Source of the DNA: Prosopocoilus inquinatus
Taxonomy: Eukaryota > Arthropoda > Insecta > Coleoptera > Lucanidae
Assembly: GCA_036172665.1 (NCBI GenBank)
Contig: CM069872.1
Location: 20,005,001-20,069,000 of the forward strand
Direction of reading: 5' to 3'
DNA length: 64,000 nt
Part shown: piece by piece, positions 588 to 58,958 of the stretch
Layout of the letters: each line of letters opens with the position of its first letter
Position numbering within the stretch: the stretch's first letter is position 1
Position numbers and translations under genes: made by a program
Notes under the pieces: model-generated
The model's database searches: none
Seen by the model: only the letters and a program-made list of their open reading frames with translations
Told to the model about the DNA's origin: nothing

Positions 588-654
588 AACATATATAGCT
601 TATTTTATATTTTTACATATTAATTTATATTGACTTACATTTAGACATATATAT

Positions 655-1004
655 TGTTACGTTTCTAGGGTTTAAATTTATTTATTTAAACGAATAAAAC
701 ACTCGGTAAAAACTTAATCGTAATTTAATAACGCTTACAAACTAATTTATTTATAACAATTTATTTTCACACTAAAAATCTAACTTCGACGATCGCTGTT
801 AGAATTCGACTGACTGGTGAGTCAATTCCGAGCGATTTTATATCATTTGCTGCCGTCTGGAATTCTCTACGCTGGAAGATTCGAGTTTGTTCCATCGCCG
901 GAAAAGTCTAGGCTGTTCGATGTAGACCCCGGTGGCGTGGCAGCCAATGACGCATAACGAACCGACTTCTTGACGCCTTGAGCTAAGCCGGGTGGCGTGC
1001 CACA
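655..1004 (-). repeat. 3' LTR of the gypsy element
   Basis: On the plus strand it starts TGTTACGTTTC and ends GGCGTGCCACA, giving TG...CA ends on both strands. It is almost identical to 6792-7140. The last 46 codons (including the stop) of the macrodomain ORF lie inside it (867-1004), so the LTR is partly coding. Confidence 0.93.
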
Positions 1005-1679
1005 CTGCCCCCTTCTTAAAAACGTTTCGTCTCGAAATGTTCCTGGTGATAGTCTTGAAGGAGGGTGTCGGAATCTACATGCTGGCCCATTCTTGCAACT
1101 TCCCGTCTGGAAGAAGTAGCAGTCTACGGTTTTGCTGTTGCTGACTGTTGCCTGTGGGTGGTGGCTGCAGACTAGGACTTCAATTCCCGTTCTGTGGAAG
1201 ATGACTTCCAGCATGCTTCGAATTACTCTCCAGTCTAGTCCGTCCAATCCGCAGCCCAATTTGAGGATGGCTAACTTCATCTGATGGTTCTCTATTAGCT
1301 GTCTCCTCAGGCTATATAGGGCTCTCCACATACTTTGATAGTCAGGTTTACCGCTTGATGTCTTCTTAGTGACTAAATAATGCACGTGGCGCCTCCGATC
1401 TGCCGTCGAATCAATGATCTGCAAGCTCTTGCCTACCATGGGATGCTGTCTTCGTAGCTCCTCGATTTGGCCAAATTTCTTCCTAAACACCTGAGCGATT
1501 CCTTTGGACATTTTCAGGTCTTCTGCTACGCAGTGGGCCAGACTGTACTCCAGTGGCACTTTAAAGAGATCTTGTTGCTTCTTCGTGGTCACTCCAAACC
1601 GTGCCTTGCTTCCTTCGGCGTGATGAGACATGAAGGTTTCGAAGTTCACTTTGTACTGTCCCTTCATCTGCTTCTCCAT
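867..1679 (-). CDS. TARG1/OARD1-like macrodomain plus CCCH zinc finger, retrotransposon ORF3
   Basis: This 270-aa ORF encodes a macrodomain at about residues 27-172, closest in pattern to OARD1/TARG1 (terminal ADP-ribose protein glycohydrolase 1), which removes ADP-ribose from acidic side chains and deacetylates O-acetyl-ADP-ribose. Landmarks are SLAHCVAED (46-54), a KGIA loop (59-62), YLVTKK (101-106) and LGCGLD (141-146). The two residues known to be catalytic in human TARG1, a Lys in TKK and an Asp in GCGLD, are both kept (K105, D146). A CCCH finger follows (C187, C195, C201, H205; C-x7-C-x5-C-x3-H), suggesting RNA binding. The start codon sits in ACCATGG and overlaps the 3' end of pol by 119 bp in the +1 frame. 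The last 45 residues read through the polypurine tract into the 3' LTR. The domain call is strong; the role in the element is inference (reversing host ADP-ribosylation or binding element RNA). Confidence 0.88.
   Translation of the reverse strand: MEKQMKGQYKVNFETFMSHHAEGSKARFGVTTKKQQDLFKVPLEYSLAHCVAEDLKMSKGIAQVFRKKFGQIEELRRQHPMVGKSLQIIDSTADRRRHVHYLVTKKTSSGKPDYQSMWRALYSLRRQLIENHQMKLAILKLGCGLDGLDWRVIRSMLEVIFHRTGIEVLVCSHHPQATVSNSKTVDCYFFQTGSCKNGPACRFRHPPSRLSPGTFRDETFLRRGQCGTPPGLAQGVKKSVRYASLAATPPGSTSNSLDFSGDGTNSNLPA
1005..1017 (-). other. Polypurine tract of the gypsy element
   Basis: On the - strand this reads AAGAAGGGGGCAG and directly abuts the 3' LTR start (TGTGGC). That is the expected position and composition for the plus-strand primer. 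The tract is also coding, lying inside the third ORF. Confidence 0.8.
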
Positions 1680-4600
1680 GGTAAGGGGCTATCCGGTTGA
1701 AGTGGATTACTTTGGGTTTGCCATGGGGGACCTTCTTGATGCGGTAAACGACGTCGTTGATCCGTTTCATCACTTTGTAAGGACCTTCCCAAGAGGTCTG
1801 CAATTTTGGGGAGAGGCCTCGACGTCTTTGGGGGTTATAAAGCCAGACCAGTGCTCCAGGTTGGTATCCCCCGTGTTGAGCGTTGATGTCATAGTGCTCC
1901 TTCATCCGATCGCTGGCCGTCTGTATATTGTGACGCACTTGGTTGTGGATATCATCCATTTTCCTGCGTAATTTGCTCACGTAATCTTCGTCGGCAGAGA
2001 CTTCGCCAGGCTTCACACCAAACTTCAGGTCGCAGGGCAGTCTCGGCTCTCGCCCGAATACCACTTTCGCGGGAGTCTCCCCTGTTGTCTCATGAACAGA
2101 TGAGCGGTATGCCATTAGAAACAGGGGGATGTACGTGTCCCAGTCCCTCTGATGATTGGAAACGACCTTGGACAAATGTCGGTTGATGGTTCTATTGAAC
2201 CTTTCCACCATTCCGTCCGACTGTGGGTGGAGTGCAGTGGTTCTAGTTTTTCGTACGCCGAGCAGAGTACACACGTTCTTGAACAAGGCCGATTCAAAGT
2301 TCCTTCCTTGGTCTGAATGCAGTTCCGTAGGTGCACCATACCGACTGATCCATTCCCTGACAAGGACTTCCGCAATAGTGACTGCCTCTTGGTTAGGTAG
2401 GGCGTAAGCTTCAACCCACTTACTAAAGTAGTCCATTACCACGACGATGTACTTGCTTCCACCATTCGTTTCTGGAAACGGGCCGGCTACATCGATGGCA
2501 ACTCTTTCAAAAGGACTTCCAACGTTGTACTGTCTCATGGGGGCCTTACCCCGCCTGTGGGGGCCGTTACTGGCTGCGCAGACTGCACACTTTCTGCACC
2601 AATCCTTCACGTCTTCCTTGCAGTTCACCCAGTAAAATCTTTCGCGCACCTTCTCCATAGTCTTCTTAACTCCCAGATGCCCTCCCGAAGTTCCATCGTG
2701 AAGTTCCCTCAGAACTTCTGGCACCCTATTCTTGGGGATTAGTAACTGTGTCTTCTGTTCCATGCCTTCTGGATTCTCCATGCTTCGTCTCAGAAGACCA
2801 CGATCCAACACTATGGAGTCCAACTGCGCCCAGTATGATTTTACGGACGGTGCACATGGTGCTACCTCTTCCCAGGTAGGCCTCGCGTCCCTGCTTTTCC
2901 ACTCTAGCACTAATTTCAAATCCGGGTCGTTCTTCTGGTCTCTTCGCAGTTCTTCGTCTTGCCATTTGTCGTCAACTATGGCTGTCCTCGCAGTCGTGGC
3001 TACTTTCTCGTCCAAACGACTATAGTGCTTACAGTCTTCGGCACAGGGTCTTCTCGACAAAGCATCGGCATTTCGATGGCTAGTTCCTGCCCGATGCTGA
3101 ATTTCAAAATCGTACTCCTGAAGTCGTTCGATCCATCGTGCAACTTGCCCTTCTGGGTTCTTGAAACGGAGAAGCCATTTTAGAGCGGCGTGGTCGGTCC
3201 TCAGCAGGAAGCGTCTACCATACAAGTACTTGTAGAAGTGTTCTATCGTTTTTACGACGGCTAGCAATTCCCTTCTTGTGACGCAATAGTTTCGTTCTGG
3301 CTTTGATAGGACTTTTCTGAAGTAGCCGATCACCTTCTCTTGCCCCTCTTGTATCTGGGAGAGTACGCCACCAATCCCAACGTTGCTAGCATCTGTGTCC
3401 ACGACGAACTTGCCTTCCGGGAGAGGATAACTCAGAATAGGAGCACTAATCAAGTACTGCTTTAGTTGTTCAAAGCCAATTTGACACTGTTGGTCCCATT
3501 CAAATGGACGACCTTCTTCAGTGAGTTTTGTCAACGGCTTAGCAATGTCTGCAAATCCAGGAACGTAGCGCCGATAGTAAGTGCACAGGCCAAGGAAACT
3601 CCTTATTTGGTGTTTATTTCTGGGAGTTGGCCAGTCTTTCACCACCTGAATCTTCACAGGGTCCACGGCGATTCCATTTCCATTAACAATGTGCCCCAGG
3701 TAATTCACTTCCTTCTGGAACAGGTGACACTTCTTGAGGCTAAGCTTTAGTCCAGCTCCGCGAAGCCGCTGGAACACTCCTTCCAGGTTCCTTAGGTGGT
3801 CGTCGAACGTCTTTCCCACGACAATTATGTCGTCAAGGTACACCATGCACGTTGTCCAGGACAGACCTTTCAGAACCGTCTCCATTAACCTCTCGAATGT
3901 CGTTGGGGCATTACATAATCCGAATGGCATCACTGTGAACTGCCACAGACCCATACCAATGGAAAACGCCGTCTTTTCTCGATCTTCGGGCGCCAGCTCC
4001 ACTTGCCAATATCCACTCTTTAAGTCCAAAGTTGAGAAGATCTTTGAGCCGGCCAGGGTGTCCAGGGTATCATCAATCCGTGGCAGGGGATAGCTGTCCT
4101 TCTTGGTGACATTATTGAGTAACCGGTAGTCTACACAGAACCTGGTGGACCCATCCTTCTTCTTCACAAGCACTACTGGTGACGCCCACGGGCTGCTTGA
4201 TGGTTCTATTACATTATCCTTTTCCATCTCGCGAATAATGCGTTCCGCTTCCTCACGCTTCGCCAACGGTAATCGCCTTGGAGCTTGACGGATGGGTCTT
4301 TCTTCTCCAGTCTCTATTTTGTGTTTCACGACATCAGTTCTTCCCTTGGATCCATTTTCTACCTCAAATACATCTTGATAGCGGCCGATCAGATTCTTTG
4401 CTTTTGTCTTCTGGTCTGGAGTCAATTCCTGGGCTGTTGACGTAACCATTTCCCATAATTTCTTTGGGACTTTCGCTTCTGGCACGTTTGTTTCAAGTTG
4501 CCGGGAGATGGAGGACACCATGGTGCAGCTTCCCAAGATTGTTCCTTTCTTGATATTGACAGAGAAACAATTGACGTTCATCAGGCGGACAGGTACTTCC

Positions 4601-5274
4601 TTCTTCGCCGTCAACAACATTTTCCCAACGAGGACTTCTCTTTCAATCCTTTGATCATCAGTATTAGGTTCAACCATAATGACTTGCCCATCTTGAAAAA
4701 CACCGTCCAGTTTTGCGTCGACGATAACCTCAGTTCTGCTAGGTAATACAACGTCTTCAGCGAGGACTACTCGAGCGGCCACGTCCCCTCGTTGATGTAG
4801 AACCAACTGCTCATTATTGACCGCCATCACGCCACGCTTTAAGTCCAATTGGAACCCGTGGGCACACATGACGTCCATGCCCAAAATTGCCTCGTCCTCT
4901 ATATCTGCCACCAGTGCACGGTGTTTTATTGGAGTTGAACCAATGGTGATGATAACCTCTACTTCACCGTGGACAGTTGCTGATGCTCCAGTTGCAGTTT
5001 TCAGTTTCCACTTGGTCGGCTCGGTGCGTCCAGATGACTTAATGACGTCGGGTCTTAGGATGGTCTTCGTCGCACCCGTATCCAATAACATGGTGTGAGG
5101 AATGTCATCAATGGTAACATCCACGAAGATACTGCTGGTTAACTGCCGTAGGGATATTACTTGGTTGACTTTCGTCTTTGGGGGCCTTTGAATACGGGTC
5201 GACGTTTGCCCCTCTGCACCGACTCGGCTTAGTTTAACTGTGGCTTCCTTGGATCCTGTCTGGGTTTTGGACAT
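1561..5274 (-). CDS. pol: Gypsy Pol: protease, reverse transcriptase, RNase H, integrase
   Basis: Open frame of 1237 aa. The aspartic protease has LLDTGAT at 64-69 (active D65). The reverse transcriptase has the catalytic box YLDD at 479-482, and RNase H carries DTDAS at 626-630. The integrase zinc domain is HHCC (H859, H866, C896, C899), with a DDE core at D928, D988 (HSDQG) and E1024 (GMVERF). After the core comes a GPYKV...HFNRIAPY module typical of the integrase C-terminus. Pol lies in the -1 frame relative to the CCHC end of gag, with a 46-bp overlap (5229-5274), as expected for -1 ribosomal frameshifting. Its final ~39 residues are out-of-frame translation of the macrodomain ORF and probably not functional. 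No disabling change was seen. Confidence 0.95.
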   Translation of the reverse strand: MSKTQTGSKEATVKLSRVGAEGQTSTRIQRPPKTKVNQVISLRQLTSSIFVDVTIDDIPHTMLLDTGATKTILRPDVIKSSGRTEPTKWKLKTATGASATVHGEVEVIITIGSTPIKHRALVADIEDEAILGMDVMCAHGFQLDLKRGVMAVNNEQLVLHQRGDVAARVVLAEDVVLPSRTEVIVDAKLDGVFQDGQVIMVEPNTDDQRIEREVLVGKMLLTAKKEVPVRLMNVNCFSVNIKKGTILGSCTMVSSISRQLETNVPEAKVPKKLWEMVTSTAQELTPDQKTKAKNLIGRYQDVFEVENGSKGRTDVVKHKIETGEERPIRQAPRRLPLAKREEAERIIREMEKDNVIEPSSSPWASPVVLVKKKDGSTRFCVDYRLLNNVTKKDSYPLPRIDDTLDTLAGSKIFSTLDLKSGYWQVELAPEDREKTAFSIGMGLWQFTVMPFGLCNAPTTFERLMETVLKGLSWTTCMVYLDDIIVVGKTFDDHLRNLEGVFQRLRGAGLKLSLKKCHLFQKEVNYLGHIVNGNGIAVDPVKIQVVKDWPTPRNKHQIRSFLGLCTYYRRYVPGFADIAKPLTKLTEEGRPFEWDQQCQIGFEQLKQYLISAPILSYPLPEGKFVVDTDASNVGIGGVLSQIQEGQEKVIGYFRKVLSKPERNYCVTRRELLAVVKTIEHFYKYLYGRRFLLRTDHAALKWLLRFKNPEGQVARWIERLQEYDFEIQHRAGTSHRNADALSRRPCAEDCKHYSRLDEKVATTARTAIVDDKWQDEELRRDQKNDPDLKLVLEWKSRDARPTWEEVAPCAPSVKSYWAQLDSIVLDRGLLRRSMENPEGMEQKTQLLIPKNRVPEVLRELHDGTSGGHLGVKKTMEKVRERFYWVNCKEDVKDWCRKCAVCAASNGPHRRGKAPMRQYNVGSPFERVAIDVAGPFPETNGGSKYIVVVMDYFSKWVEAYALPNQEAVTIAEVLVREWISRYGAPTELHSDQGRNFESALFKNVCTLLGVRKTRTTALHPQSDGMVERFNRTINRHLSKVVSNHQRDWDTYIPLFLMAYRSSVHETTGETPAKVVFGREPRLPCDLKFGVKPGEVSADEDYVSKLRRKMDDIHNQVRHNIQTASDRMKEHYDINAQHGGYQPGALVWLYNPQRRRGLSPKLQTSWEGPYKVMKRINDVVYRIKKVPHGKPKVIHFNRIAPYHGEADEGTVQSELRNLHVSSRRRKQGTVWSDHEEATRSL

Positions 5275-6693
5275 CGCCTACGAACATGTCCTTCCTCCTG
5301 GCAATTCCAACACACCAGCGGCTTCTTCTGCTTGAGGACCTGTTCCACAATGCGGCGAACATCCTCGGCGGTGGCATATTCCTTGGATTGCCCCTTATTA
5401 GCAGATCCCACCTTGGCGTTGGCGGACTCTTCTTCTTCTTCCTCTTGGAAGTCCATAGCCGCTCGCACCTTGACATGCCCTCTTGAAACTCGTCTCGCCG
5501 CTTCAAATTCCAAGGCATAAGCCAATGCGTTCTTGGACGTCTTCGGATGGGTCATTCTCAATGCCTGCTGGTTGTCTGCAGTATGCCAATTGGGTCAGAC
5601 TCGCTACGTCTGCTTCGAATTCCTGAAGACTTTCTCCGGATTTCTGACAGCGATTCCTCAACTGCGCATGGTATACCTCGGTCAGATGGGCCTGTCCGTA
5701 ACGCATTTCCATCCTATTCACCAGCTTATCGAAGTCTTCTTGTTCCTCTGACGACATCGTCTGTAGCACATAGATAGCGTCCCCTCTCAAGGCCACAATT
5801 AACGAAGTGGCTTTTTCGCGGGCCGTCCATCTGTTTGCCTTTGCTGCTGCTTCGAACTGTTTGAAGTAGTTGGGCCAAGAAGACTTTCCATCAAACGTCG
5901 GTGGTTTTATTTTTAATTTCGAATTTTCTGCTGGTCCTCCTACAATTCGGGTTTCATTATTTTCTAGTATTTCTACTGGTGGCTGATCCCCGAACACTCG
6001 CAACCCCGCCATGATTTGTTCCAGATTTTTGATTTTGTTATCCTGCTGGAATATTATTTCTTCCACATTTTCTTGCAGGTTTCTTGTTTCTTCCGATATT
6101 TTTACCACTAGTTTATCTTCGAGTCCTTTCGTCTGTTCTAGAATTTCACCCTTCAAATTTCCGGACTGTTCTAGAAGTTTCTCGTCGAAATTTCTGGATT
6201 GCTCTAGAAATTTCTCGTCTAAGTCTCTAGATTGTTCCAACAATTTATTTTGTAATTTGTCGAAATTTCCAGATTGTTCTAGAAGCTTCTCCTCTAAATT
6301 TCTGGATTGTTCTCGAAGTTCGTCCTTGAAATTTCCAGATTGTTCTAGAAGCTTCTCCTCTAAATTGCTGGATTGTTCTCGAAGCTCGTCCTTGAAATTT
6401 CCAGATTGTTCTAGAAGTTTCTTCTCTAAATTTCCAGACTGTTCTTGAAACTTCTCGTCCAAATTTCTGGATTGTTCTCGAAATTCATCCTTCAAGATTT
6501 TATTAAAATCGGCGGGACCACACGAAATTTCGAAAAGGAACGTCTCTGGATCTTCACCAGCTGTCAACAAATCGCATCGGAGACGCTGTTGAAGTTCGCC
6601 TTTCAAACCACAGGTTTCTAACTCTCGTTCTTCCAATTCGGTTTTTAATTCGGCCACTTTTAAGTCTTTCAACAACACTTTTCTCGTAGCCAT
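5229..6693 (-). pseudogene. gag: Gypsy Gag with SAP domain, hendecad coiled coil and CCHC knuckle (one frameshift)
   Basis: The first frame (6693-5503) opens with a SAP-like helix pair (about residues 8-42), a DNA-binding motif. Eleven 11-residue repeats of the type EQSxNLxEKLL follow (about 73-196), then a Gag core starting near KPPTFDG. This frame ends early at 5503. The continuation is in the +1 frame (5561-5229) and ends with a CCHC zinc knuckle (CWNCQEEGHVRRRC). The change of frame near 5570-5580 is consistent with one extra base. Apart from it, gag looks whole. The SAP domain and hendecad coil are uncommon in Gag and suggest chromatin association and strong oligomerisation; that is inference. 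Confidence 0.85.
6106..6477 (-). repeat. 33-bp tandem repeat encoding an 11-residue coiled-coil repeat in gag
   Basis: About eleven copies of a 33-nt unit built on the TCTGGATTGTTCTAGAA motif (plus-strand reading). The unit stays in frame and encodes EQSGNLEEKLL-like hendecads. One copy is 3 codons longer (FDKLQNKLL), still in frame. Confidence 0.85.
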
Positions 6694-6773
6694 TGTTTTT
6701 TTTTCGATAATGTACTTATTTAATAATCTGATTAAATTTAATTTACTTTAAATTGTTTATTTATTTGCACAAA

Positions 6774-6791
6774 CCCGCACACCGACACCAC
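6774..6791 (-). other. Putative primer binding site
   Basis: On the - strand, one base after the 5' LTR, the sequence reads TGGTGTCGGTGTGCGGG. It begins with TGG, as needed to pair with a tRNA CCA end. I cannot name the tRNA. Confidence 0.45.
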
Positions 6792-7140
6792 TGTTACGTT
6801 TCTAGGGTTTAAATTTATTTATTTAAACGAATAAAACACTCGATAAAAACTTAACCGTAATTTAATAAAGCTTAAAAACTAATTTATTTGTAACAATTTA
6901 TTTTCACACTAAAATCTAACTTCGACGATCGCTGTTCGAATTCGACTGCCTGGTGAGTCAACTCCGGGCGATTTTATATCATTTGCTGCCGTCTGGAATC
7001 CTCTACGCTGGAAGATTCGAGTTTGTTCCATCGCCGGAAAAGTCTAGTCTGTTCGATGTAGACCCCGGTGGCGTGGCAGCCAATGACGCATAACGAACCG
7101 ACTTCTTGACGCCTTGAGCTAAGCCGGGTGGCGCGCCACA
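6792..7140 (-). repeat. 5' LTR of the gypsy element
   Basis: Pairs with 655-1004; TG...CA ends. It holds a start-less copy of the coding tail of the macrodomain ORF. Confidence 0.93.
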
Positions 7141-7161
7141 ATATCTTTTAGGATGATTAGA

Positions 7162-24400: not shown

Positions 24401-27400
24401 AATTATTTTAAGATATATACAGATATTATTTTTTTTATTTTCTATTAAATAACAAGTTACCTATGCACCAGAAACTAAAAGAAATTCAGTTGGTTTTTTC
24501 AAAAAATCAATTGGTAAAACCTATTTATAACATGCTACAATTCTGAACCCAATTGTAAGCACTATTAAATATTATTGAGTCATTTAAATCGCCAGATTAA
24601 TTAACTTAGCATGAATACGATCGAGTTCAAAATTCTACATCAATTAGAAAATAGAAATAATAATTAGTAATGCATAAAGTACTGCGACTTACACAAAACT
24701 ACTGATAATTTCTTAAAGAAAAAAACTCTTCAATAGAAAACATTAAACAAGAAAGAAGGTTTCTTAACTACTTATTCCTATTTACTAAAATAAATGTTCA
24801 AACTGCCTACCGTTTTCTCGGAGGCAAATTTGACATCTTTTGTTAATCGAGTTTATTGCGTTTTGAATTTGAAATGGTGAAATTTTGCGAAAAGCATTCT
24901 CTATATTATTTTCTAAAACATTGATAGTATTATTTTGTTTCGAATAAACGTAGTTCTTTAAATTGCCCGACAGAAAAAAATCTAGAGGCGTTATATCCGG
25001 TGTTCTTGGAGGCCATTTTATAGGTCCATTAGGACCAATCCATTTGTCAGTAAAACGCTGGTTTAAAACATTTTGAGTTAAAAATGAAGCATGTGGTGGT
25101 GCTCCATCTAATTGAAACCAGGCTGCTTCTTTTTCATTATTCTGCATATTATTCAGAAATTGTGTCAAATGTATATTTAGCAACTCAACATAGAGAGCAG
25201 CATTCAAATTTTGCTCATACGTAAAATAGTGTAATTTGTTCTTTTTAAGAAAACTACAAACATTCACTCCAAATCGTCCTTGCCGACGTCGAGTTGTTGT
25301 GGCATGAGGATTTTCATTGCTCCAGTGATGATGATTATGACGATTAAATGTTCCGTCGCTGGTAAATCGGGCTTCGTCACTCCAAATGATGTTATTTTGG
25401 AAAGTATTGTCCAATCTACACTTATTTAACTACCATTGACAAAATTCTGTCCTTTTTTGAAAATCTTCCGGATATAGAAAATGATTCATTCTGATTCTGT
25501 ATGGTCTAAATTTATGCTCTTGTAAAATTTGTAAAGTTTTTGTTTTACTTACTCCTATATCGTTTTCTATTTCTCTCGAAGAAATATTTGGATTGGCTTC
25601 AACCAACGCCAAAACGTTCATAACCTCATTTTCTTTCTCAGGTTTACTGTACTTTTTTGGTTTGGGTTTCTCAAAAGCTCCATACAGTTTTAAATTATTT
25701 TCAATTCTCTTATAAACTTTTGAATCTGGTTTCGGATGTTGTAATTAAATCCTTCCCGCTCTCGATATATGCTGTAAGCATGTCCCATTTCTCCAAATTA
25801 TCGTAAGAAACCATCGTAACGTGATCTCTTTTAATTTTGACAGGACAGCGTCACATTATGTCTTTTTTCCTGAGAAATGGATTGGTCCTAATGGACCTAT
25901 AAAATGGCCTCCAAGAACACCGGATATAACGCCTCTAGATTTTTTTCTGTCGGGCAATTTAAAGAACTACGTTTATTCGAAACAAAATAATACTATCAAT
26001 GTTTTAGAAAATAATATAGAGAATGCTTTTCGCAAAATTTCACCATTTCAAATTCAAAACGCAATAAACTCGATTAACAAAAGATGTCAAATTTGCCTCC
26101 GAGAAAACGGTAGGCAGTTTGAACATTTATTTTAGTAAATAGGAATAAGTAGTTAAGAAACCTTCTTTCTTGTTTAATGTTTTCTATTGAAGAGTTTTTT
26201 TCTTTAAGAAATTATCAGTAGTTTTGTGTAAGTCGCAGTACTTTATGCATTACTAATTATTATTTCTATTTTCTAATTGATGTAGAATTTTGAACTCGGT
26301 CGTATTCATGCTAAGTTAATTAATCTGGCGATTTAAATGACTCAATAATATTTAATAGTGCTTACAATTGGGTTCAGAATTGTAGCATGTTATAAATAGG
26401 TTTTACCAATTGATTTTTTGAAAAAACCAACTGAATTTCTTTTAGTTTCTGGTGCATAGGTAACTTGTTATTTAATAGAAAATAAAAAAAATAATATCTG
26501 TATATATCTTAAAATAATTAAACCATACATTTTTGTAAAGCTTATTAAATCAGTATTTTATTGGTGTCTTCAAATTATCGTAAGAAACCATCGTAACGTG
26601 ATCTCTTTTAATTTTGACAGGACAGCGTCACATTATGATTTATTTCTTCATTTGTTGAATTTAGCAATCTAAGCCTACTTACTGTCGTATTCATTCTTTG
26701 TGGTGATAGAAAAATGAAAACATTCAATAATTTCGTTGTTTATGAAAATAAATGCATCGAGTTATATATTTTTGAAAAGGTAAGGAAACAAGCAATTTAC
26801 TGGTGTCATAGCCAACTGAGGTTTCCATTTAAAATTTTAAAGTTATATTCGGTTTCGCAAAACTGGTGCGGCTTTTACGAAAGACAATAACGTCAGTTAG
26901 ATATCCGCTCATTGCTGAATAAAACAGTTTTTGAATTTTCAAAATATCTCATCAAATTGGCGAGATATTGTGAAAAATAGTTTTTCGCGAAAATTCGTTT
27001 TCGGCCGATATTTCCCGAACGAATCGAGATAGCTAACTTTTGTTTTCTCCACTGAGTTTTTCTCGAAAAAGTAGCACTGGGTCGCGGGAACGGTTTTCTT
27101 CTGCTGCTTTAAATAACTGAGAAATCCTGGAAAACCATCAAAAATGGTCCACTCTGTACATCAAACCGAACTGCGAGAAGAAAACTAATGATAGATGAAC
27201 CTGCGAAACCGCACCGTCACCGCAACGTACGTGTGCGGTGTTTCGTTAGATCTATGGTTTCATAGACTGCAAATGCAACGTCGTTGCGGCAAAATATGTA
27301 CGTGCGTATCTAGCCTTACGAGAAAAAAGTTACCGTTCACATATTCTAGATCAGACCTTAGCATGGTAGGGGAACATGACGAGGTATATCCCCTTTCTTC

Positions 27401-28405
27401 GCGATATTAGTTGCGCGCTTATCTCAGCAACCAATCACACTGGGACCTTTTTTGTAACTTCTGTGTGATCACACTTGTTTGTTAATGGATTCATTGTTAC
27501 CGTCGATGGGTGGGGGATACTACAAGCTGGCTCTTCTCGTATTTTATGCCCAGGTTTGTTCTAGATACATGAACATCTTGCTGCCACATCCGAAGTACTC
27601 GTCGGAAAAGCGGGATGTAACCGATGGGCAATACGAGGACCAATATTCATGTTCGCCCCCGGCCGTGGGCATGATTTCCTTGTCCGTTATCATCTTGATA
27701 TTATTCTTCGTAGAGATAGCGAAAGCTAGTGATCATTTCGGCTCGGGCCCCATCGCCCTGGCTTTAATGTACGATCCGCACCGACGAAGAGAAGTCTGGC
27801 GGTTCATCACTTACATGTTCGTTCACATCGGGTATTTCCATCTCATAGTCAATCTGCTGGTGCAAATTATGCTCGGCGTCCCCCTCGAAATGGTTCATCA
27901 CTGGTGGCGAGTCTTGATAATTTATTTCGCTGGCGTCCTCGCCGGATCTCTCGGCACCAGCATAACTGATCCGACGGTGAGGTTGGCCGGAGCTAGCGGT
28001 GGGGTGTATTCGTTGATCACCGCGCACATTGCAACCATTGTAATGGTAAGTCTCCCATTCGTGTTCGACCAAAATGTTTTATTTTTGTTGCCATAGAATT
28101 GGAATGAAATGTCTTACCCATACGTCCAGCTGTTAATCTTCTTGGTGATAACCGTCAGCGACGTTGGTACCGCTATATACAACCGTTACGTGCTTGATAA
28201 AGACGAGCACATCGGGTACGCGGCTCATTTGTGTGGGGCGGTAGCCGGGTTGCTCGTCGGCATCACCCTGCTAAGGAATCTTGAGAAACATCGCACTGAG
28301 AAAATCCTGCAGAAAATCGCTATCGTCGTCTACGTTTTGCTGATGGGCACGGCTATTTTGTGGCACTTTGTTTACCCCAGTTACTTCCCCGTGCAAACTG
28401 TTTAA
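18370..28405 (+). CDS. rho-4-like: EF-hand rhomboid intramembrane serine protease (rho-4/RHBDL-like), four exons
   Basis: Exons 18370-18453, 18969-19174, 27565-28045 and 28097-28405 join in matching phases (0, 2, 0) into 1080 nt, 359 aa. The cytosolic N-terminus has two canonical EF-hand loops (D30-E41, D66-E77), each with Gly at position 6 and Glu at 12. The rhomboid core follows: a first membrane helix (about 131-148), a WR motif in loop 1 (W175-R176), H189 and N193 in helix 2, the catalytic Ser in GASGG (S241) and the catalytic His in YAAHLCG (H301). Rhomboids cleave single-pass proteins inside the membrane; EF-hands suggest calcium control, as known for Drosophila rho-4. The start ATG has A at -3. 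Intron 2 is 8.4 kb and full of transposons. No lesion is seen; assignment within the EF-hand group is by architecture. Confidence 0.88.
18622..18885. mobile_element. ~311-bp-repeat element in rho-4 intron 1, exact 13-bp TSD
   Basis: Flanked by CGTCTTACTTTAC at 18609-18621 and 18886-18898. The left half is a perfect palindrome of about 100 bp centred on GGACAGCTGTCC (near 18684). A single-copy right part ends GCTATTTTATATGTT. It lies wholly inside intron 1. Confidence 0.85.
18969..19174 (+). CDS. rho-4-like: rho-4-like exon 2 (paired EF-hands)
   Basis: Acceptor TGATTTTTTAG, donor AG|GTAGGG. The 206-nt exon encodes both EF loops (DVNRDGYVSYSE and DRNDDGQLDYDE) and ends in phase 2 within an Arg codon. 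Confidence 0.9.
19175..20480 (+). other. Start of rho-4 intron 2, no element identified
   Basis: No exon fitting the required phase was found. A TACAGGGTGTTGATAA string at about 19609 resembles a mariner-type end, but I found no partner. The rest is AT-rich single-copy-looking sequence. Confidence 0.5.
20493..20796. mobile_element. ~311-bp-repeat element, 12-13-bp TSD
   Basis: Flanked by AATAAAGGTAAT (20481-20492 and 20797-20808; a 13th base differs T/C). It contains the same landmarks as the other copies, with an internal deletion and an inverted right part, and ends GCTGTTTTATCTGTT. Confidence 0.75.
20966..21237. repeat. Direct repeat R1 (LTR-like, unclassified)
   Basis: Begins ACAAGCCGTCGCTTCACAC and ends CGTCACGGCTATAACA. 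A related unit lies at 22017-22293, and the last ~100 bp recur at 21830-21932. On the - strand it begins TGTTATAGCCGTGACG, which looks like an LTR start, but the other end is not CA. It may be a small LTR-type or other non-autonomous element. Confidence 0.5.
21460..21548 (-). tRNA. tRNA-like sequence (degenerate class II tRNA or SINE head)
   Basis: On the - strand an 89-nt tRNA-like stretch has 6 of 7 acceptor pairs (TGCATAG / CGATGCA), an A box (TAGCTGAGTTGG), a B box (GAGTTCGATTC) and a T stem GTGAG/CTCAC. The length suggests a long variable arm (Leu/Ser type). The anticodon stem has a mismatch and I cannot assign the anticodon. It lies between copies of an unclassified direct repeat, so a tRNA-derived SINE or pseudogene is more likely than a working tRNA. 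Confidence 0.4.
22017..22293. repeat. Direct repeat R2, partner of 20966-21237
   Basis: Begins ACAAGCTGTCGCTTTACAC and ends CGTCATGGCTGTAACA. It is roughly 80% similar by eye to 20966-21237, with an extra insertion near 22160-22195. Confidence 0.5.
22343..22461. mobile_element. Small perfect-armed hairpin element
   Basis: GCGTTTTTCGCTGGTTGAAC at 22343 is exactly inverted at 22442-22461. The arms continue through CCAGTGTGCACTGAGTGT, about 38 bp, followed by an imperfect ATCTCxATCTC. The loop is about 25 bp. Confidence 0.7.
23139..24078. mobile_element. ~311-bp-repeat element: two direct units and one inverted, 12-13-bp TSD
   Basis: Two units repeat with a 311-bp period (GCAAATCGTTCTTGATTGC at 23151 and 23462); a third is inverted after about 23680. 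The flanks TTTAAAATTTTA (23127-23138 and 24079-24090) are the target duplication. The intact right arm of the host mariner preserves the empty site with one copy of CTTTAAAATTTTA, which proves insertion. Confidence 0.88.
24785..25735 (-). pseudogene. DD41D (rosa-type) mariner transposase, near full length, broken
   Basis: A helix-turn-helix N-terminal part (25735-25433; ISSREIENDIGVSKTKTLQIL) and a catalytic part (25414-24785) share one frame, split only by a TAG codon at 25430-25432 after ...FCQW. A further frame change lies near the N-terminus (about 25735). The catalytic triad is D in WSDEARF, D in LDGAPPH and D in TPLDFF. The last two are separated by 41 residues, the DD41D signature of rosa-type mariners rather than the DD34D of classic mariner. 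The C-terminus is CLRENGRQFEHLF. A second copy of the last 87 codons is inverted at 25875-26135. Confidence 0.8.
25875..26135 (+). pseudogene. Inverted duplicate of the DD41D transposase C-terminus
   Basis: Encodes the same C-terminal residues as 24785-25045 (WIGPNGPIKW through NGRQFEHLF) on the opposite strand, with no visible change. It is part of the right foldback arm. Confidence 0.8.
27565..28405 (+). CDS. rho-4-like: rho-4-like exons 3 and 4 (protease domain)
   Basis: Exon 3 (27565-28045) follows the acceptor GTTTGTTCTAG; its first base completes the Arg codon split by intron 2. It ends before a 51-bp intron (28046-28096, GTAAGT...CCATAG). Exon 4 ends in TAA at 28403-28405. An upstream in-frame ATG (27485) would give an alternative start, but it lies in the intron side of the acceptor and lacks the EF-hands. 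Confidence 0.9.
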
Positions 28406-44972: not shown

Positions 44973-47900
44973 TTATAATTTATATTTTGAAACAACTAAA
45001 AATTTATATAGGCAATTGTAAAGATTATTGTCTTTGTGAAATAACAGAGAATTTATCGAGTATGGAGAGCAGAAATTAAGATCATTAAGTTCTTTGAAAA
45101 GGAGCAGAATGTTATTATTGCGTTGACAGTTAAAGAAAATGTGGTTCAGATCTTCAATAGAACCACATATACAAGAGTTTTGTGAAATTATATTGAACCT
45201 AGCCAAGTGAAATTTACAACAACAGTGCCCTGTTCTGAGCCGACACATGGTAGTAATGTAAGATCTACAACGGAATGGCTCAAAGGAAAACCAGGGTTTA
45301 ACGTTCACATCTGGATTGATGTTAAAATACCATTTTCCCTTCTGCTCACAAGATTTTTCCCAATATTCTTTCCAAGACTTAAACATGAATTTCCTGAGCA
45401 ATTTAAACAAATCACCATAAAAAATTTTGTTGTTATTGCAAGGAGACATATCACCTAATTTCGCTAAATGATCGGCTGTTTCATTACCTTCAATACCTCT
45501 ATGGGCAGGGATCCAACACAAAGTGATTTTCTTATTTGCACAAAAAGCTTCAGAAAGAAGATCTCTGATTTCAAAAATTAAAAAATGAGTATTGTTTTTG
45601 TAATTCATTGAGCCCAGCGCTTTAAGAGCACTTAAGGAATCAGAGAAAATTACAAAATCCGAACAAGAGCTGTCTAGGGCTAATTTGATGGCAGTAAATA
45701 TTCCCCAAAGTTCCGAACTATATATGGAGTTAAAATTATTGATTCGGCGGGAGATTTTGATATCCAGACTAGAACAGAAAATACCAAACGAGGAACGATC
45801 AGGTTCTTTAGAAACCGAGCCATCTGTAAATATTTGGCACACACTGGGCCAAATTTCATTGGAAAGTTGACTAAAGAAGGCGTTGACTTCTTTTTCTCCG
45901 AGTCCTATACTAGCAATTTTTTCGCCGAACCAGAATACTATATTGGGAACTAAGCTTAAAGATTTGTAGTCGTGCTGGAACAGCTCATGAGAAGAGGTTG
46001 AATGAATGGTATTTGAAAAATCGTCTAAAAATTCGAGACTTTTTATTAGAAGTGGCAAGCCTTGACCCCTGCTGTTTCTTCTACGAGGAAATACTCTTAC
46101 CAAAGTCCGGATGCCTGTGATAGTTGGGTTGGGTTGAATCGACAAGTTCTTGAGGCAGTATGATTTTGATATGTAGTCAAATCTTATTTCAAGTGGCACA
46201 ATCCCAGCTTCCATTTCTAACACATTGGTGGGAGTTGATCTCATAATTCCAAGACATATTCGGAGTGCCTGATATTGTATTTTTTCTAGTTTATTAAACC
46301 ATGTTGGCGATATATGAGCGAAGAGAAAACAACCATATTCTAAACGTGCTCGGATGAAAGCCTTGTAAAATGTTAGAAGGGTCATGGGATCCGCACCCCA
46401 ACGAACCCCGGCTAATGATCTTATGATGTTAATGCCTTGATTGCATGATTTCAAAAGGTAGTTTACATGACTTCTCCAGTTCATTTTAGAGTCGAATTGG
46501 ATGCCCAGATAACGTACTTCTTTTTTGGAAGGTATTACCATATCGTTAAAGAAGATATTAGAAGTGAAAGGCGTTCTCCTTCTACTAAACGGAACAACAA
46601 CGCTTTTAGAGGTGGACAATGATAAGCCGTTCTTCTGCAACCACTTATTTAGCTTAATGAGTATTGAGTTGATTTTTTCTGCAGCTTGGAGAAAGCAATC
46701 GCTGGAAACATAAACGACTATATCGTCTGCGAATTGTAGTATTTTCCCCTCTCCACTCAGGATAGATGCCAAATCATGAGTGTATAAGTTGTAAAGTAAG
46801 GGACTTAAGACACTCCCCTGCGGAAGTCCAAGGAACGAAGATCGTGACCCAATTTCTAAGGTGCTTGATTTTAAAGTCAAAACTTTTTCGGAAGTGAGAG
46901 CTATTATCAGGTTAACTATCTTTTTTGGAATGTCCAGGTTTATAAGTTTTCCTTTTAGAACTGGAATGTTGACATTGTCATAGGCAGCCTTGATATCAAT
47001 GAAAACTGCCACTACTACCTGATTACGACAGAATGATCTCAAGATATCACAGGTTAGATTGGAGAGACAATCCAATGTACCTTTCCCTCTTCGAAACCCG
47101 TACTGTGTGTCAGAAAAAATAGAATTTTTTTCACACCACCAGTTGAGTCTTGACTTGATTATTCTTTCTAAAACTTTTCTAAAGCATGATAACAGGGCAG
47201 TAGGTCTGTAACCCTCAGCGCTATTCAGATTTTTATTTGGCTTAGGAATGGGACAGATCAATGTCTGTTTCCACGAAACTGGTATTTGAGGAGAAAGAAT
47301 GAGTCTGTTAAACCAGTTTATCAGAAATTTTTTAGCAGACTGAGGTAAGTGTACAATCATAGAGTACGTTATTCCATCCAAACCAGGTGACGACTTATTT
47401 GTTTCCAATAAGGCATTATTAAACTCCAAAAGGGAGAAGGGTTCCTCAAGAAAGTGTGAGGAACAATCAGAAGAAACAAAGCAAATTTCGTCAAATGAAG
47501 GAGCATAATCAGGTGCAAGAGATTTCAAAAAGTCTTCCTTCCAAGAGAGATCACCTGCAGCTTCCGGGTGAAGGTCTTTAAACGCGCATCTGTATCGTCT
47601 AACGGCTTTCCAGACTTCTCCTGAAGAAACATTTCTATTGAGGGACCCACAGAAAGTTTTGAAACTTTCTCTTTTTTTCTTAAGTAAAATCCTTTTAGAC
47701 TTTGCGATATATCGTTTTGCTATGATGAAAGCTTCGAAAGATCCCGACGATTTATACTGTGCGATGAGATTTTTCCTCAAAGTAATAATTTTCGAGCATT
47801 CTTCGTCCCACCAGGGATTTAGAGATCTATTTGATGAAAGGGGTTTCGATTTCGGAATTGCTTTTTCAGCCGCTCTAGAAACACTTGCAACCAGAGAGTC

Positions 47901-48701
47901 GTAATCAATAACTTTGAAACATTCAATGTCTTTGTCTATTAACGAAGAAAATAATTCCCAATTTGCTTTCTTAAAAATAAAACGACTGGCAATATTTGTC
48001 CTCTTATTATTGACACTGTTCTGCAGGATAGAAGTGAAAATTGGAAAATGATCGCTGCCCATTGTATCGTCCTGGGTACTTGAGGAACACAACGAAGCCA
48101 ATTCGTTTGAGCAAATAAATAAATCTATGATGCTAGAGTTGGCGCCGGGAGGAGAGAACAGAGTCGGTTTCCCATCATTTAAGACTACCAGATTATTTTC
48201 CTGGATTAATTTGTTCAAGCTATGTCCTCTACTGTTGCAAAATGAACTTCCTCAATTAATATGATGGGCATTAAAGTCACCGATGATTACAAAAGGTTTA
48301 GGAATGTCCTTTACTATAAAACTCCAATTGTTGAAGGACATGTGCACGTCAGGCGGAATGTAACAAGATAGAAACGTAATACCACTAACTTCTGATTTTA
48401 GGAACTGGGCTCTAGGCAAGTGCGCCAAGCGAAGAATCTTGCTCTTGTAAGCCAGACCTCGTCTAAAAAGGGCTGAAACACCCCCTTTACCATCGTCCCT
48501 TCGATTATTCACAGAGTAATAACCAGATGTAGTAATTGAGTAATTGTGCTTGAGCCAAGTTTCGAATAAAAATATAACATCTGGGTGAAAATCTTGTACC
48601 AAACTCAAGAGACTAGGTTTATTTTTTGAAAAACTTCTAATATTCCATTGCATGATTTTTAAGGGTTGAATGATTGAATTAGGAACAACATTTAAAGCCA
48701 T
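44973..48701 (-). pseudogene. LINE ORF2: endonuclease, reverse transcriptase, RNase H (one nonsense codon)
   Basis: Starts MALNVVPNSIIQ and overlaps the end of ORF1 by 10 nt, suggesting stop-start coupled translation. The APE endonuclease has MQWNIRS, FLFETWL, GDFNAHH and GSDHFPIF. An in-frame TGA at 48252-48254, just after GDFNAHHIN, splits the frame, which otherwise continues unbroken to 44973. The reverse transcriptase has DIKAAYDNV, LPQGSVLSPLLYNLY and FADDIVVY (catalytic DD). RNase H has FTDGSVS, the SSELWGI Glu, SDSLSAL and WIPAHRGIEGNETAD. A C-terminal CxCGxxxxxxHxxxxC motif follows (CICGSIEDLNHIFFNC). Confidence 0.92.
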
Positions 48702-50308
48702 TGTAGAAATTGATGAAACTTGATTGGAATCGAATTCAATAACAACTGCTTAAACAGAGCTGGGTCCTCACTAAATGTTTTTTTGAGAGTTTCGACGATT
48801 ATGTCATTATTAAAAGTTTTGGGGTCCAGGTCGGCACTGATGCATGCGCTTGGAAGAGAATTGAACGGACGTTGCGAAAAATTAAAACAGGGACGTTTTT
48901 CATTACTATCTGGGGATCTACCATTTGGACAAAGCAAACTACTATTGTTATGGTAATTTGTTTTCCTTTTATAGGTGACCTTAGCCGTGTTCTTTGTGGA
49001 GGAGGTAATGAGTTTGTGACTATTGCCACCAACAGCTTCGGCAAAAGAATTTAACTGGCGAGTTTGCATGGAAGGGATGGGAGTGACGCCTGGTGCGTTT
49101 GAGACACCATTTTCCAAGGGGGGAAAATCCGTGTCTACGTTAAGCGTTGGAGCTGAAGAAAGATCCTTATTCGTCAGCAATCCATTGGCTTCATAATAGG
49201 AATAATTGTAGAAGGCCATAAGTTCCTTGATCTTTTTTTGTTTAAGAAATTCAGAACACGTTCGATCAACTAGCTTGGTGCCCTTTTCAGTGGTTAGATG
49301 AGGCCCTTTGCAAAAGGCACATTTGGGAGTCGATTTTTTTTCACAATCTTCTAAGTCATGAGGATCCAAACAAGCTGGGCAACGAATTGTGCTGTTACAG
49401 AGAGCCTGCGTGTGACCATACCGACAACATTTGAAACATTGTATGACAGGGAGTTTAAATATTTCAGGTTTTCTGATATTGTAGAATAAGCTGATAGATT
49501 CTGGAAGTCTTTTGCCGCGAAACGTGATAACAACTGAGGAGGAGTTGACGTATTTAGTTGTTCCTTCTTCAGTGACACGCCTTTTAAGTCGTCTCACTTT
49601 AAGGGGACGGGAAAGACCAGGTGTTTTAATATTTAAGAGAATCTGATCCTCAGTTAGATCTGCATCAACTTGCCGAATTATTCCTTTACAAGATATTAGG
49701 TGGTCAGGAACAAAAGCTCTCAGGTTGCGTTCCAAAAGAAATTTGTGCTTGAGAAAGTTGTTCGCAGTGTAAGAGGAATTAAACAAAATAGCTAACCTAT
49801 TTTTGCCTTTCTTTTCCACCTTCGATATGCCACTAATATTTTCTTTATAAAGCCAATTGCCTACAGTCATAGGTCGAAGTTGTCCCAAATTCCCGGATGA
49901 CGATTCCACGTAAACAAAGTATGGGGGAAAATCGTTCGGTTCATAATAACTTAGTGTGGCGGGGGTCTTGTCTTTGCCAGTTGCCGTTTGACGTTGCTGT
50001 TGTAAAATTTCCTTAGAAAGGGTTTTTACACTTGGGGAAATAGTTACTTTCTGGTAACTATTCTTGGGATTATAATAGAAACCCTTGTTTACTACTTCTT
50101 CTAGTTCTACTAACATTGAAGGAGTAAGTGCCAATTGTGACATGAAGTCTCGGTCAGTTGCTGAATCGATTTTCGATTCCAAACAGTTGATTATTGGAAT
50201 TATTGATTGAGAGGAATTATCATCATCAGAAATGGAACTGTCTTCTTTATCAATAGCCATATATTCTTCATGTTGGGGGGAAGGGTTTCCCCCCGAGGAA
50301 TCATTCAT
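48692..50308 (-). CDS. LINE ORF1: Gag-like nucleic-acid-binding protein
   Basis: 538 aa, open. The middle has an RNA-binding-like region (about residues 125-290). Zinc knuckles begin CFKCCRYGHTQALC, followed by CPACLDPHDLEDC and CAFCKGPHL, the three-knuckle arrangement of Jockey/I-type ORF1 proteins. It binds element RNA as a chaperone in known family members. The start at 50308 lies about 200 bp inside the element's 5' end. The end overlaps ORF2. Confidence 0.88.
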   Translation of the reverse strand: MNDSSGGNPSPQHEEYMAIDKEDSSISDDDNSSQSIIPIINCLESKIDSATDRDFMSQLALTPSMLVELEEVVNKGFYYNPKNSYQKVTISPSVKTLSKEILQQQRQTATGKDKTPATLSYYEPNDFPPYFVYVESSSGNLGQLRPMTVGNWLYKENISGISKVEKKGKNRLAILFNSSYTANNFLKHKFLLERNLRAFVPDHLISCKGIIRQVDADLTEDQILLNIKTPGLSRPLKVRRLKRRVTEEGTTKYVNSSSVVITFRGKRLPESISLFYNIRKPEIFKLPVIQCFKCCRYGHTQALCNSTIRCPACLDPHDLEDCEKKSTPKCAFCKGPHLTTEKGTKLVDRTCSEFLKQKKIKELMAFYNYSYYEANGLLTNKDLSSAPTLNVDTDFPPLENGVSNAPGVTPIPSMQTRQLNSFAEAVGGNSHKLITSSTKNTAKVTYKRKTNYHNNSSLLCPNGRSPDSNEKRPCFNFSQRPFNSLPSACISADLDPKTFNNDIIVETLKKTFSEDPALFKQLLLNSIPIKFHQFLQWL

Positions 50309-55091: not shown

Positions 55092-56470
55092 TTTTTAAAC
55101 CGAAACTGAGTCTGTATATATACACAGGCAGAAAACTAAATTCTAATACTAAGAACACCACCTAGAAGCATCTGGAGGGATTTTTTAATTACAGGCTTCG
55201 AAGAAGGATGAATACATTAGGTCAGTTTGGTCGTTCAATAATATTTCTTCGGAATTATTCGCCGCGTTACGAATTTCTAAAGACTCTAATAAGTTTAATT
55301 TAATGCTTTTTTCGGCGTAATGTAAAATTTGTGCATTGTCTGAAGCGAATGTTTTTCTGCGATTAAATGGTTGGCAAAATTTGAATCAGTTTTTTGTAGC
55401 TTAAAAGACCGAATGTGTTCTTGAATGCGTGTGGCAAAATTTCTCTCAGTCTGACATATGTAAACACCTTTACAATCATTACATTGTAGTTTATATACAC
55501 CAGATTTTTTAAATTTGTCTATTTTAACTTTATTGTTAAAAATTAAATTTGAGATTTTATTATAAGGTTTATATGCAACAATTATATCTTGATTTTTGCT
55601 AATTATTCTACCTATTTTTTCGGATATTTTACCAAAATATGTGAGTGAAACGAACTGTTTGTTACTAGAATTTACCTTGGGATATATAGAGTTTAATGTT
55701 TGTTTTTGTAGTTTATTTTTAAGAATTTTGTCAATTATGTTGCTGTTGTATCCATTGTTAGTAGCTATTTGTTGAAGATAAATGGCTCTATGAATCATAG
55801 AATTAAATGCTGAAAGTTTTTGTTTGTATGAGTGCGATGAATCTGCAGGAATTAATGAGTCTGTGTACGTGGGTTTCCGGAAAATATCAAATATTAAGTT
55901 GTTGTTCTTGTTGGTTATAGTTAGGTCCAAAGAGTTTAGATTATTGTCTTCTTCCATTTCAACTGTGAATTTTATTTTAGGGTGTATTGAGTTAATAAAA
56001 TTTAAAAAAGTTTGTAACTGTCTAGCTGTACCACTAAAACATGCTATTATATCATCTACATATCGGTACCAGAAATGTGTTTTTTTACTTATCTCGGATG
56101 ATAAGATTGTTTCTGTAATAAAGTTCATAAAAATCTCAGCCAGTAATGGGCTTAACGGTGAACCCATTGCTAAACCTTCTTTTTGTATGTAAAATTTATT
56201 TGAAAACATGAAGTAATTTTGTTTAATAACTAAACTTGTTAATTCTAAAATTTCGTTTGAGATTAACGGATTTACTCTTTTTTCTATCAAGATATTTTTC
56301 ATTAAATTTAAGTAATCTTTAGTAGTTATTGGAGAACATGTTAGATACATCAAACGATACTATTTTTGCATTATTTGGTATTTTTTCTTTCACTAATTTC
56401 TTTACTATTTGAATGGAATTTTGAATAGACGTAGGGTCAGAGTCAGTTTTTTTAAATATCACACGAAGTT
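55092..56470 (-). mobile_element. Penelope-like element, minus copy
   Basis: On the - strand it runs from the palindrome centre near 56460 to a 3' end at about 55092-55200 (CTGTATATATACACAGGCAG; GCATCTGGAGGGATTTTTT). Its coding frame (56353-55295) has a reverse transcriptase and a GIY-YIG endonuclease. The same 3' end is repeated in inverse at 57130-57220. Confidence 0.8.
55295..56461 (-). pseudogene. Penelope-like RT and GIY-YIG endonuclease, broken
   Basis: The frame from 56353 has LAMGSPLSPLLAEIFMNF, FWYRYVDDIIACF (catalytic YVDD), the palm end KIKFTVEMEEDN and the GIY-YIG domain KSGVYKLQCNDCKGVYICQTERN...RIQEH. The Gly of YIG is replaced by Cys here (YIC), which should weaken or kill the nuclease. 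Upstream, IVSFDVSNMF (RT motif A) is in a different frame at about 56365, so a one-base change separates it. The 5' part is missing and the C-terminus frame also changes at about 55295. Confidence 0.85.
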
Positions 56471-58878: not shown

Positions 58879-58958
58879 GGAGGTGAGATTATAATAAAAA
58901 TAGAACTTATGATAGTAGTTTAGCAGTTCCGATATTTTCTTGAAAATAGCCGTTGGTT

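What the first reader, a model, noticed from the sequence alone, without database searches (positions are those of the whole stretch)
867..1679. LTR retrotransposon carrying a TARG1/OARD1-like macrodomain with a CCCH zinc finger
The ORF lies inside a complete Ty3/gypsy element, after pol and ending within the 3' LTR. The macrodomain keeps both TARG1-type catalytic positions (K105 in TKK, D146 in GCGLD), followed by a C-x7-C-x5-C-x3-H finger. Known macrodomain proteins of RNA viruses reverse host ADP-ribosylation in antiviral defence. A retrotransposon with its own, apparently intact, ADP-ribose hydrolase fused to an RNA-binding finger suggests an analogous counter-defence or RNP function. The domain call rests on sequence; the role is inference. 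I know of no established Ty3/gypsy family defined by this ORF.
Basis: partly seen in the sequence, partly recalled or inferred. Interest (0 to 1): 0.93.

Follow-up and report, generated by a model that had tools for sequence, protein, structure and literature searches.

The report
Jumping gene carrying ADP-ribose-removing enzyme domain
A beetle retrotransposon carries, at the end of its replication polyprotein, a domain that closely resembles the cell's own ADP-ribose-removing enzyme TARG1, and other retrotransposon families in the same genome carry the same kind of domain at another place in the polyprotein, which suggests that stripping ADP-ribose helps such elements.

The parts
655..7140 (-). 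complete Ty3/gypsy LTR element
   Evidence: LTR pair, TSD ATAT both sides, gag/pol domains
655..1004 (-). 3' LTR (TG...CA ends)
   Evidence: 12 of 349 aligned positions differ from the 5' LTR, K2P 0.035
6792..7140 (-). 5' LTR
651..654 (.). target-site duplication ATAT (left)
7141..7144 (.). target-site duplication ATAT (right)
6773..6790 (-). primer-binding-site-like tract (inferred)
   Evidence: sequence just after the 5' LTR in element sense; tRNA not matched
5503..6693 (-). gag ORF: SAP domain and repeats of 33-nt spacing
   Evidence: PF02037 6.2e-7
5229..5561 (-). CCHC zinc knuckle ORF (gag end)
   Evidence: PF00098 3.4e-6
1561..5274 (-). pol ORF: protease, RT, RNase H, integrase, p58_C
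   Evidence: protease 4867-5124, RT 3685-4167, RNase H 3112-3498, H2C2 2566-2739, rve 2233-2514, p58_C 1684-1785 (converted from residues)
867..1679 (-). ORF with macrodomain and CCCH finger; in the family the C-terminal part of Pol, in this copy out of frame with pol at the junction
1170..1592 (-). TARG1/OARD1-type macrodomain, ORF residues 30-170
1365..1367 (-). K105, aligned with the TKK lysine of OARD1
1242..1244 (-). D146, aligned with the GCGLD aspartate of OARD1
1059..1133 (-). CCCH zinc finger, ORF residues 183-207
1005..1018 (-). polypurine-tract-like sequence, inside the coding frame
867..1004 (-). C-terminal tail of the ORF encoded by the 3' LTR
   Evidence: stop at the same distance in 24 of 30 copies

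Best explanation
The ORF is the C-terminal domain of the Pol polyprotein of a beetle Ty3/gypsy family: a TARG1-type macrodomain, taken (inferred) from an animal OARD1 transcript, followed here by a CCCH finger. It most likely works as an ADP-ribosyl hydrolase carried into the particle and the integration complex with Pol, where it removes mono-ADP-ribose from element proteins (acidic side chains) or from terminal phosphates of element RNA and cDNA, so that host ADP-ribosylation cannot block reverse transcription or integration. In the window's lineage the CCCH finger would hold it to nucleic acid. Shown: fold, catalytic residues, Pol fusion, three Pol positions, dN well below dS between families, many copies. 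Inferred: catalysis, packaging, substrate, benefit.
For: Fold and catalytic residues: (K in 31 of 32, D in 30 of 32 element rows). Pol fusion: 27 of 30 copies; 21 of 73 homologues carry integrase p58_C in the same protein. Three positions: PR-Macro-RT in B, C, D, F, G, H, K; INT-Macro in the window family (A; I is another copy of it) and in E, and in P0196 and P0206; RH-Macro-INT in P0204. Selection: macro dN/dS 0.14 (B-C), 0.20 (G-H), 0.15 (D-F), with pN 0.17-0.29 against pS 0.63-0.72. Many like copies: 16 rows share one macro score and a 1,764-aa open frame, as in the family-G copy examined; three of them form a tandem repeat. No intron in the elements, a GT-AG intron in the own host OARD1. 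TARG1 removes ADP-ribose from proteins and nucleic-acid ends: passages of PMC6582358 and PMC8053099. Mobile elements, several of the gypsy superfamily, tend to rise in Drosophila parp-1 mutants: passages of PMC7712786.
Against: No activity was measured. Of 20 INT-macro rows two lack the aspartate and one lacks the lysine. The CCCH finger was not found in B-H and K (pattern within 300 residues; Pfam), so it is not part of a shared function. H-K macro dN/dS is 0.42 on about 17 changes; the lower values rest on near-saturated dS (1.4-2.5); macrodomains evolve faster than RT-RNase H (B-C 66% against 97% identity, dN/dS 0.14 against 0.03), which could be weaker constraint. The family-A polymorphism counts are biased: 50 of the 51 copies come from a list ranked by protein score. 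Direct attack of insect ADP-ribosyltransferases on retroelements is not established; the PARP-1 paper itself says the effect may be indirect.
Confidence: 0.6

Rival explanations
1. ADP-ribose reader: the domain at the integrase C-terminus tethers the integration complex to ADP-ribosylated chromatin (DNA breaks, PARP-marked sites), taking the place that a chromodomain has in chromoviruses (recalled).
For: C-terminal of integrase in the window family and family E; [quoted passage not shown]
Against: In B, C, D, F, G, H, K the domain lies between protease and RT, far from integrase; a pure reader would not need the catalytic lysine and aspartate, yet they are kept in 31 and 30 of 32 element rows.
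Confidence: 0.22
2. Cytoplasmic counter-defence protein made as a separate accessory ORF, like alphavirus and coronavirus macrodomains.
For: Hydrolase fold and residues; separate ORF in the window copy.
Against: In 27 of 30 copies it is in one frame with the end of pol; structural identity is 36% to TARG1 but 13-15% to Chikungunya.
Confidence: 0.1
3. Neutral passenger: a captured host fragment without function.
For: Faster evolution than RT-RNase H and dN/dS 0.42 in the closest pair H-K.
Against: dN/dS 0.14-0.20 in three other comparisons; presence at three Pol positions; conserved catalytic residues.
Confidence: 0.05
4. Assembly or annotation artefact, or host OARD1 pseudogenes hit by insertions.
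For: Gene models can mis-join elements (general knowledge).
Against: At least 142 matches on many contigs, open frames over 1,900 aa in families B and C, and the host OARD1 gene sits elsewhere with an intron.
Confidence: 0.02

Closest known systems
TARG1/OARD1 (C6orf130)
   Different: here a domain of a retroelement Pol, without the intron of the own host gene, in this lineage with a CCCH finger
Macro-domain ORFs of fish epsilon-like endogenous retroviruses (Basta et al. 2009, not held; known from one passage of PMC4977317)
   Same: retroelement with a captured macro domain
   Different: described there as additional ORFs in vertebrate retroviruses; their macrodomain class was not checked here; here Pol-internal in insect Ty3/gypsy at three positions
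Retroviral dUTPases
   Same: captured enzyme at three places: before protease, inside pol, after integrase (passages of PMC1224870)
   Different: other enzyme, acts on dUTP
Chromoviruses (recalled)
   Same: extra domain after integrase
   Different: no chromodomain among Pfam matches of this pol
Alphavirus macrodomains (Chikungunya)
   Different: 13-15% identity; non-retroid viruses

Membership tests
Ty3/gypsy LTR retrotransposon | Pol order PR-RT-RH-INT | tested here: met
Ty3/gypsy LTR retrotransposon | flanking LTRs and target-site duplication | tested here: met
Ty3/gypsy LTR retrotransposon | RT phylogeny within named Ty3 clades | not tested
   only 12 macro-bearing sequences were put in the RT tree; no reference clades
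TARG1/OARD1 macrodomain | best sequence and structure match is OARD1 among solved structures | tested here: met
TARG1/OARD1 macrodomain | catalytic Lys and Asp | tested here: met
   window K105, D146; 31 of 32 and 30 of 32 element rows
TARG1/OARD1 macrodomain | hydrolysis of ADP-ribosyl ester substrates | not testable with these tools
   needs an enzyme assay
CCCH zinc finger | C-x7/8-C-x5-C-x3-H profile match above cutoff | tested here: met
   PF00642 27.7 bits, cutoff 20.5
Chromovirus | chromodomain at the integrase C-terminus | tested here: not met
   no chromodomain among Pfam matches listed to E 1; HMMER's filters drop most weak matches
Fish retroviruses with macro-domain ORF | retroviral RT and separate macro-domain ORF | not tested
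   Basta paper not held

The most novel reading that the evidence does not exclude
ADP-ribosylation is a general insect barrier to reverse-transcribing elements, acting on element RNA/cDNA ends or on Pol proteins, and Ty3/gypsy lineages have overcome it several times over by taking a TARG1-type hydrolase into Pol (after protease, between RNase H and integrase, after integrase), swapping the module between families.
Probability: 0.3. Interest if true: 0.92.

Novelty: new variant of a known kind. Interest (0 to 1): 0.78.

Why it matters
If the domain is active, reverse-transcribing elements carry an enzyme that erases ADP-ribose as part of Pol. That would point to ADP-ribosylation of retroelement proteins, RNA or cDNA as a real host pressure in insects, where (as far as I know) it is not established. 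One beetle genome offers several RT lineages with the same domain at different Pol positions, so the question can be tested with isolated domains.

Tried and rejected
Separate accessory ORF: rejected for the family. Pfam Macro profile as proof: too weak for the window ORF (12.8 bits), replaced by PDB match and model. One origin of 33 element rows in the macro tree: weakly rejected (AU p 0.047); one clade of insect elements (p 0.313), of B, C with D-K (p 0.218), of INT-macro with E (p 0.288) and of the four RH-macro rows (p 0.254) were not rejected. So the number of captures is open; only the three positions are firm. Origin from this beetle's own OARD1: not supported, the own host gene falls with five beetle hosts at 99/96. 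Two candidate host loci (L059, L060) turned out to lie in damaged elements. Viral relatives: 145 of 166 stretches in viral contigs encode a relative, 80 kept; in 0 of these 80 loci (up to 4 kb on each side) did four RT queries hit at 1e-3. Foldseek searches of PDB and viral models were switched off.

Literature: searches (1 paper; 1; 3; 0) list every paper found; searches show only 20 of 920, 20 of 43, 15 of 311 and 10 of 115. Among the papers listed none is titled or abstracted as dealing with a macrodomain in an insect or Ty3 element. The library lacks most subscription papers, so absence is weak. All seen as listings except passages of PMC4977317, PMC8195603, PMC6582358, PMC8053099, PMC7712786, PMC1224870.

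Full report

It is part of Pol. In the own genome 142 of 142 scored candidates match (2,532 first-look candidates, so a lower bound); in all of these rows but two the match begins at residue 9 or 10. In 27 of 30 copies whose DNA was held, the end of pol lies in the same frame as the macrodomain; of the other three, L020 is also in frame with an altered motif, L026 has a stop close upstream, and L001 is the window copy. So the family has PR-RT-RH-INT-Macro-CCCH, with the junction in one frame, and the window's copy is split there; copies unbroken at that junction exist. Among public proteins 21 of 73 hits carry the integrase p58_C domain in the same protein. The named hits that cluster with the window's domain are beetles (Aromia, Molorchus, Exocentrus, Gonioctena, Callosobruchus, Brassicogethes, Pyrocoelia) and the leafhopper Macrosteles (lineages looked up for three of them, beetle status of the rest recalled).

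Other families, other positions. A flea OARD1 query found 151 matches in the same genome, including families with open frames of 1,575, 1,764, 1,916 and 1,953 aa. Nine representatives were fetched. By RT-RNase H identity I is another copy of the window family (99%), K of H (99%), and B and C are close (97%); so the own-genome set stands for seven RT lineages: A/I, B/C, D, E, F, G, H/K. Pfam scans of pieces gave protease upstream and RT-RNase H downstream of the domain in B, C, D, F, G, H, K (7 of 7), with an integrase zinc-binding domain further down in six (not D, whose frame ends earlier) and the rve core within the piece in F, G, K; in E and I the domain follows integrase. The Pfam Macro profile passes its cutoff in B, C, E, H, K; D, G and I fall below it and F is not listed; those four are recognised by the TARG1-based search and the alignment. 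P0204, a database protein from an unnamed contig, is PR-RT-RH-Macro-INT; P0201 is a Macro-INT fragment, P0065 and P0067 are RH-Macro fragments; P0196 and P0206 are INT-Macro-CCCH. The finger pattern follows the domain in A and I and in 21 of 91 database proteins examined, and was not found in the other own-genome families within 300 residues.

Origin. In a tree of 64 domains, 19 of 20 INT-macro rows plus two Macrosteles rows form a clade (100/98), sister to D, F, G, H, K (99/95); B/C and E lie apart without strong placement; P0204, P0201 and P0067 fall with non-insect hosts (98/98), P0065 with Rhamnusium proteins (97/91). One clade of all 33 element rows is weakly rejected (p 0.047), one clade of insect elements is not (p 0.313). 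RT-RNase H splits into D-K, B/C and A/I/P0196/E. The host OARD1 of this genome was found through its second domain; it has a GT-AG intron inside the macrodomain and groups with five beetle OARD1 genes (99/96), which suggests that the host is a beetle. The element domains examined have no intron there, as expected from capture of an RNA. B and C are 97% identical in RT-RNase H but 66% in the macrodomain, with dS 0.45 against 1.38 and a step in a sliding comparison: this suggests that the module is exchanged between elements, though dS near saturation limits the claim.

Selection. Macro dN/dS is 0.14 (B-C), 0.20 (G-H), 0.15 (D-F) and 0.42 (H-K, about 17 changes); D-G and F-H were saturated. The dS values of the first three are 1.4-2.5, so the ratios are rough, but pN (0.17-0.29) is far below pS (0.63-0.72). 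RT-RNase H is stricter still (0.03 for B-C, 0.11 for H-K). In 51 copies of the window family the per-site ratio is 0.32 for singletons and 0.11-0.14 for shared variants in the macrodomain, 0.48, 0.28 and 0.12 in integrase (45 copies), 0.14, 0.43 and 0.00 in the finger (few changes), and 0.55-0.75 in the LTR-encoded tail of the same ORF. Fifty of these copies come from a list ranked by protein score, which depletes amino-acid changes, and the shared-variant contrast of macrodomain against tail gives Fisher p 0.058, so this is supportive only. The lysine is kept in 31 of 32 and the aspartate in 30 of 32 element rows. Sixteen rows share one macro score and 1,764-aa open frames like the family-G copy examined; three of them are a tandem repeat. 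That suggests recent spread; insertion dates were not measured.

Mechanism. TARG1 removes mono-ADP-ribose from acidic residues and from terminal phosphates of DNA and RNA, and binds RNA (passages of PMC6582358; PMC8053099). In Drosophila parp-1 mutants mobile elements, several of the gypsy superfamily, tend to be upregulated, possibly indirectly (passages of PMC7712786). Retroviruses acquired dUTPase three times, before protease, within pol and after integrase (passages of PMC1224870). The macrodomain shows a similar pattern: an enzyme that tolerates several places between Pol modules. That argues for a packaged enzyme rather than a device tied to integrase. I therefore favour a Pol-borne hydrolase that cleans element proteins or nucleic-acid ends (0.6) over a chromatin reader (0.22). 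Catalysis, packaging and substrate are inference.

Novelty. Macro-domain ORFs in fish endogenous retroviruses were reported (Basta 2009, cited in PMC4977317; passage read; the paper is not held). Searches listed no paper on TARG1-type domains within Ty3/gypsy Pol; four of these lists were cut and the library lacks most subscription journals. I file it as a new variant of a known kind.

Noticed in passing
window 57442-63994 (-): A second Ty3/gypsy-like element, running to the window edge, with gag-pol ORFs and a 478-aa ORF in env position; no macrodomain noticed (read by eye, not scanned).
   Followed up: no
window 44973-50308 (-): LINE-like element with ORF1 (538 aa) and endonuclease/RT pieces (by eye).
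   Followed up: no
window 55295-56353 (-); 24785-25414 (-); 27479-28096 (+): Penelope-like RT ORF; mariner-like transposase ORF; rhomboid-like host exon (by eye).
   Followed up: no
L041-L044: B and C: near-identical RT but diverged macrodomain and linker, with higher synonymous divergence; looks like module exchange.
   Followed up: partly
G000:C5:47386738, 47398220, 47409702: Three macrodomain matches of family-G type spaced exactly 11,482 bases apart: a tandem repeat that contains an element.
   Followed up: no
L162 nt 418-864 and 1315-2034: The own host OARD1 locus holds a second, upstream macrodomain half similar to OARD1, as if the gene were duplicated.
   Followed up: no
P0205: Metagenomic protein with DNA-ligase and PARP-type zinc-finger domains (precomputed Pfam) and a TARG1-like macrodomain.
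   Followed up: no
L081-L160: TARG1-like macrodomain genes on viral contigs; 80 loci kept, none with an RT hit nearby.
   Followed up: partly
P0038, P0040, P0043, P0065: Three Rhamnusium proteins group with an RH-Macro fragment (97/91); possibly another element lineage or co-opted copies.
   Followed up: no
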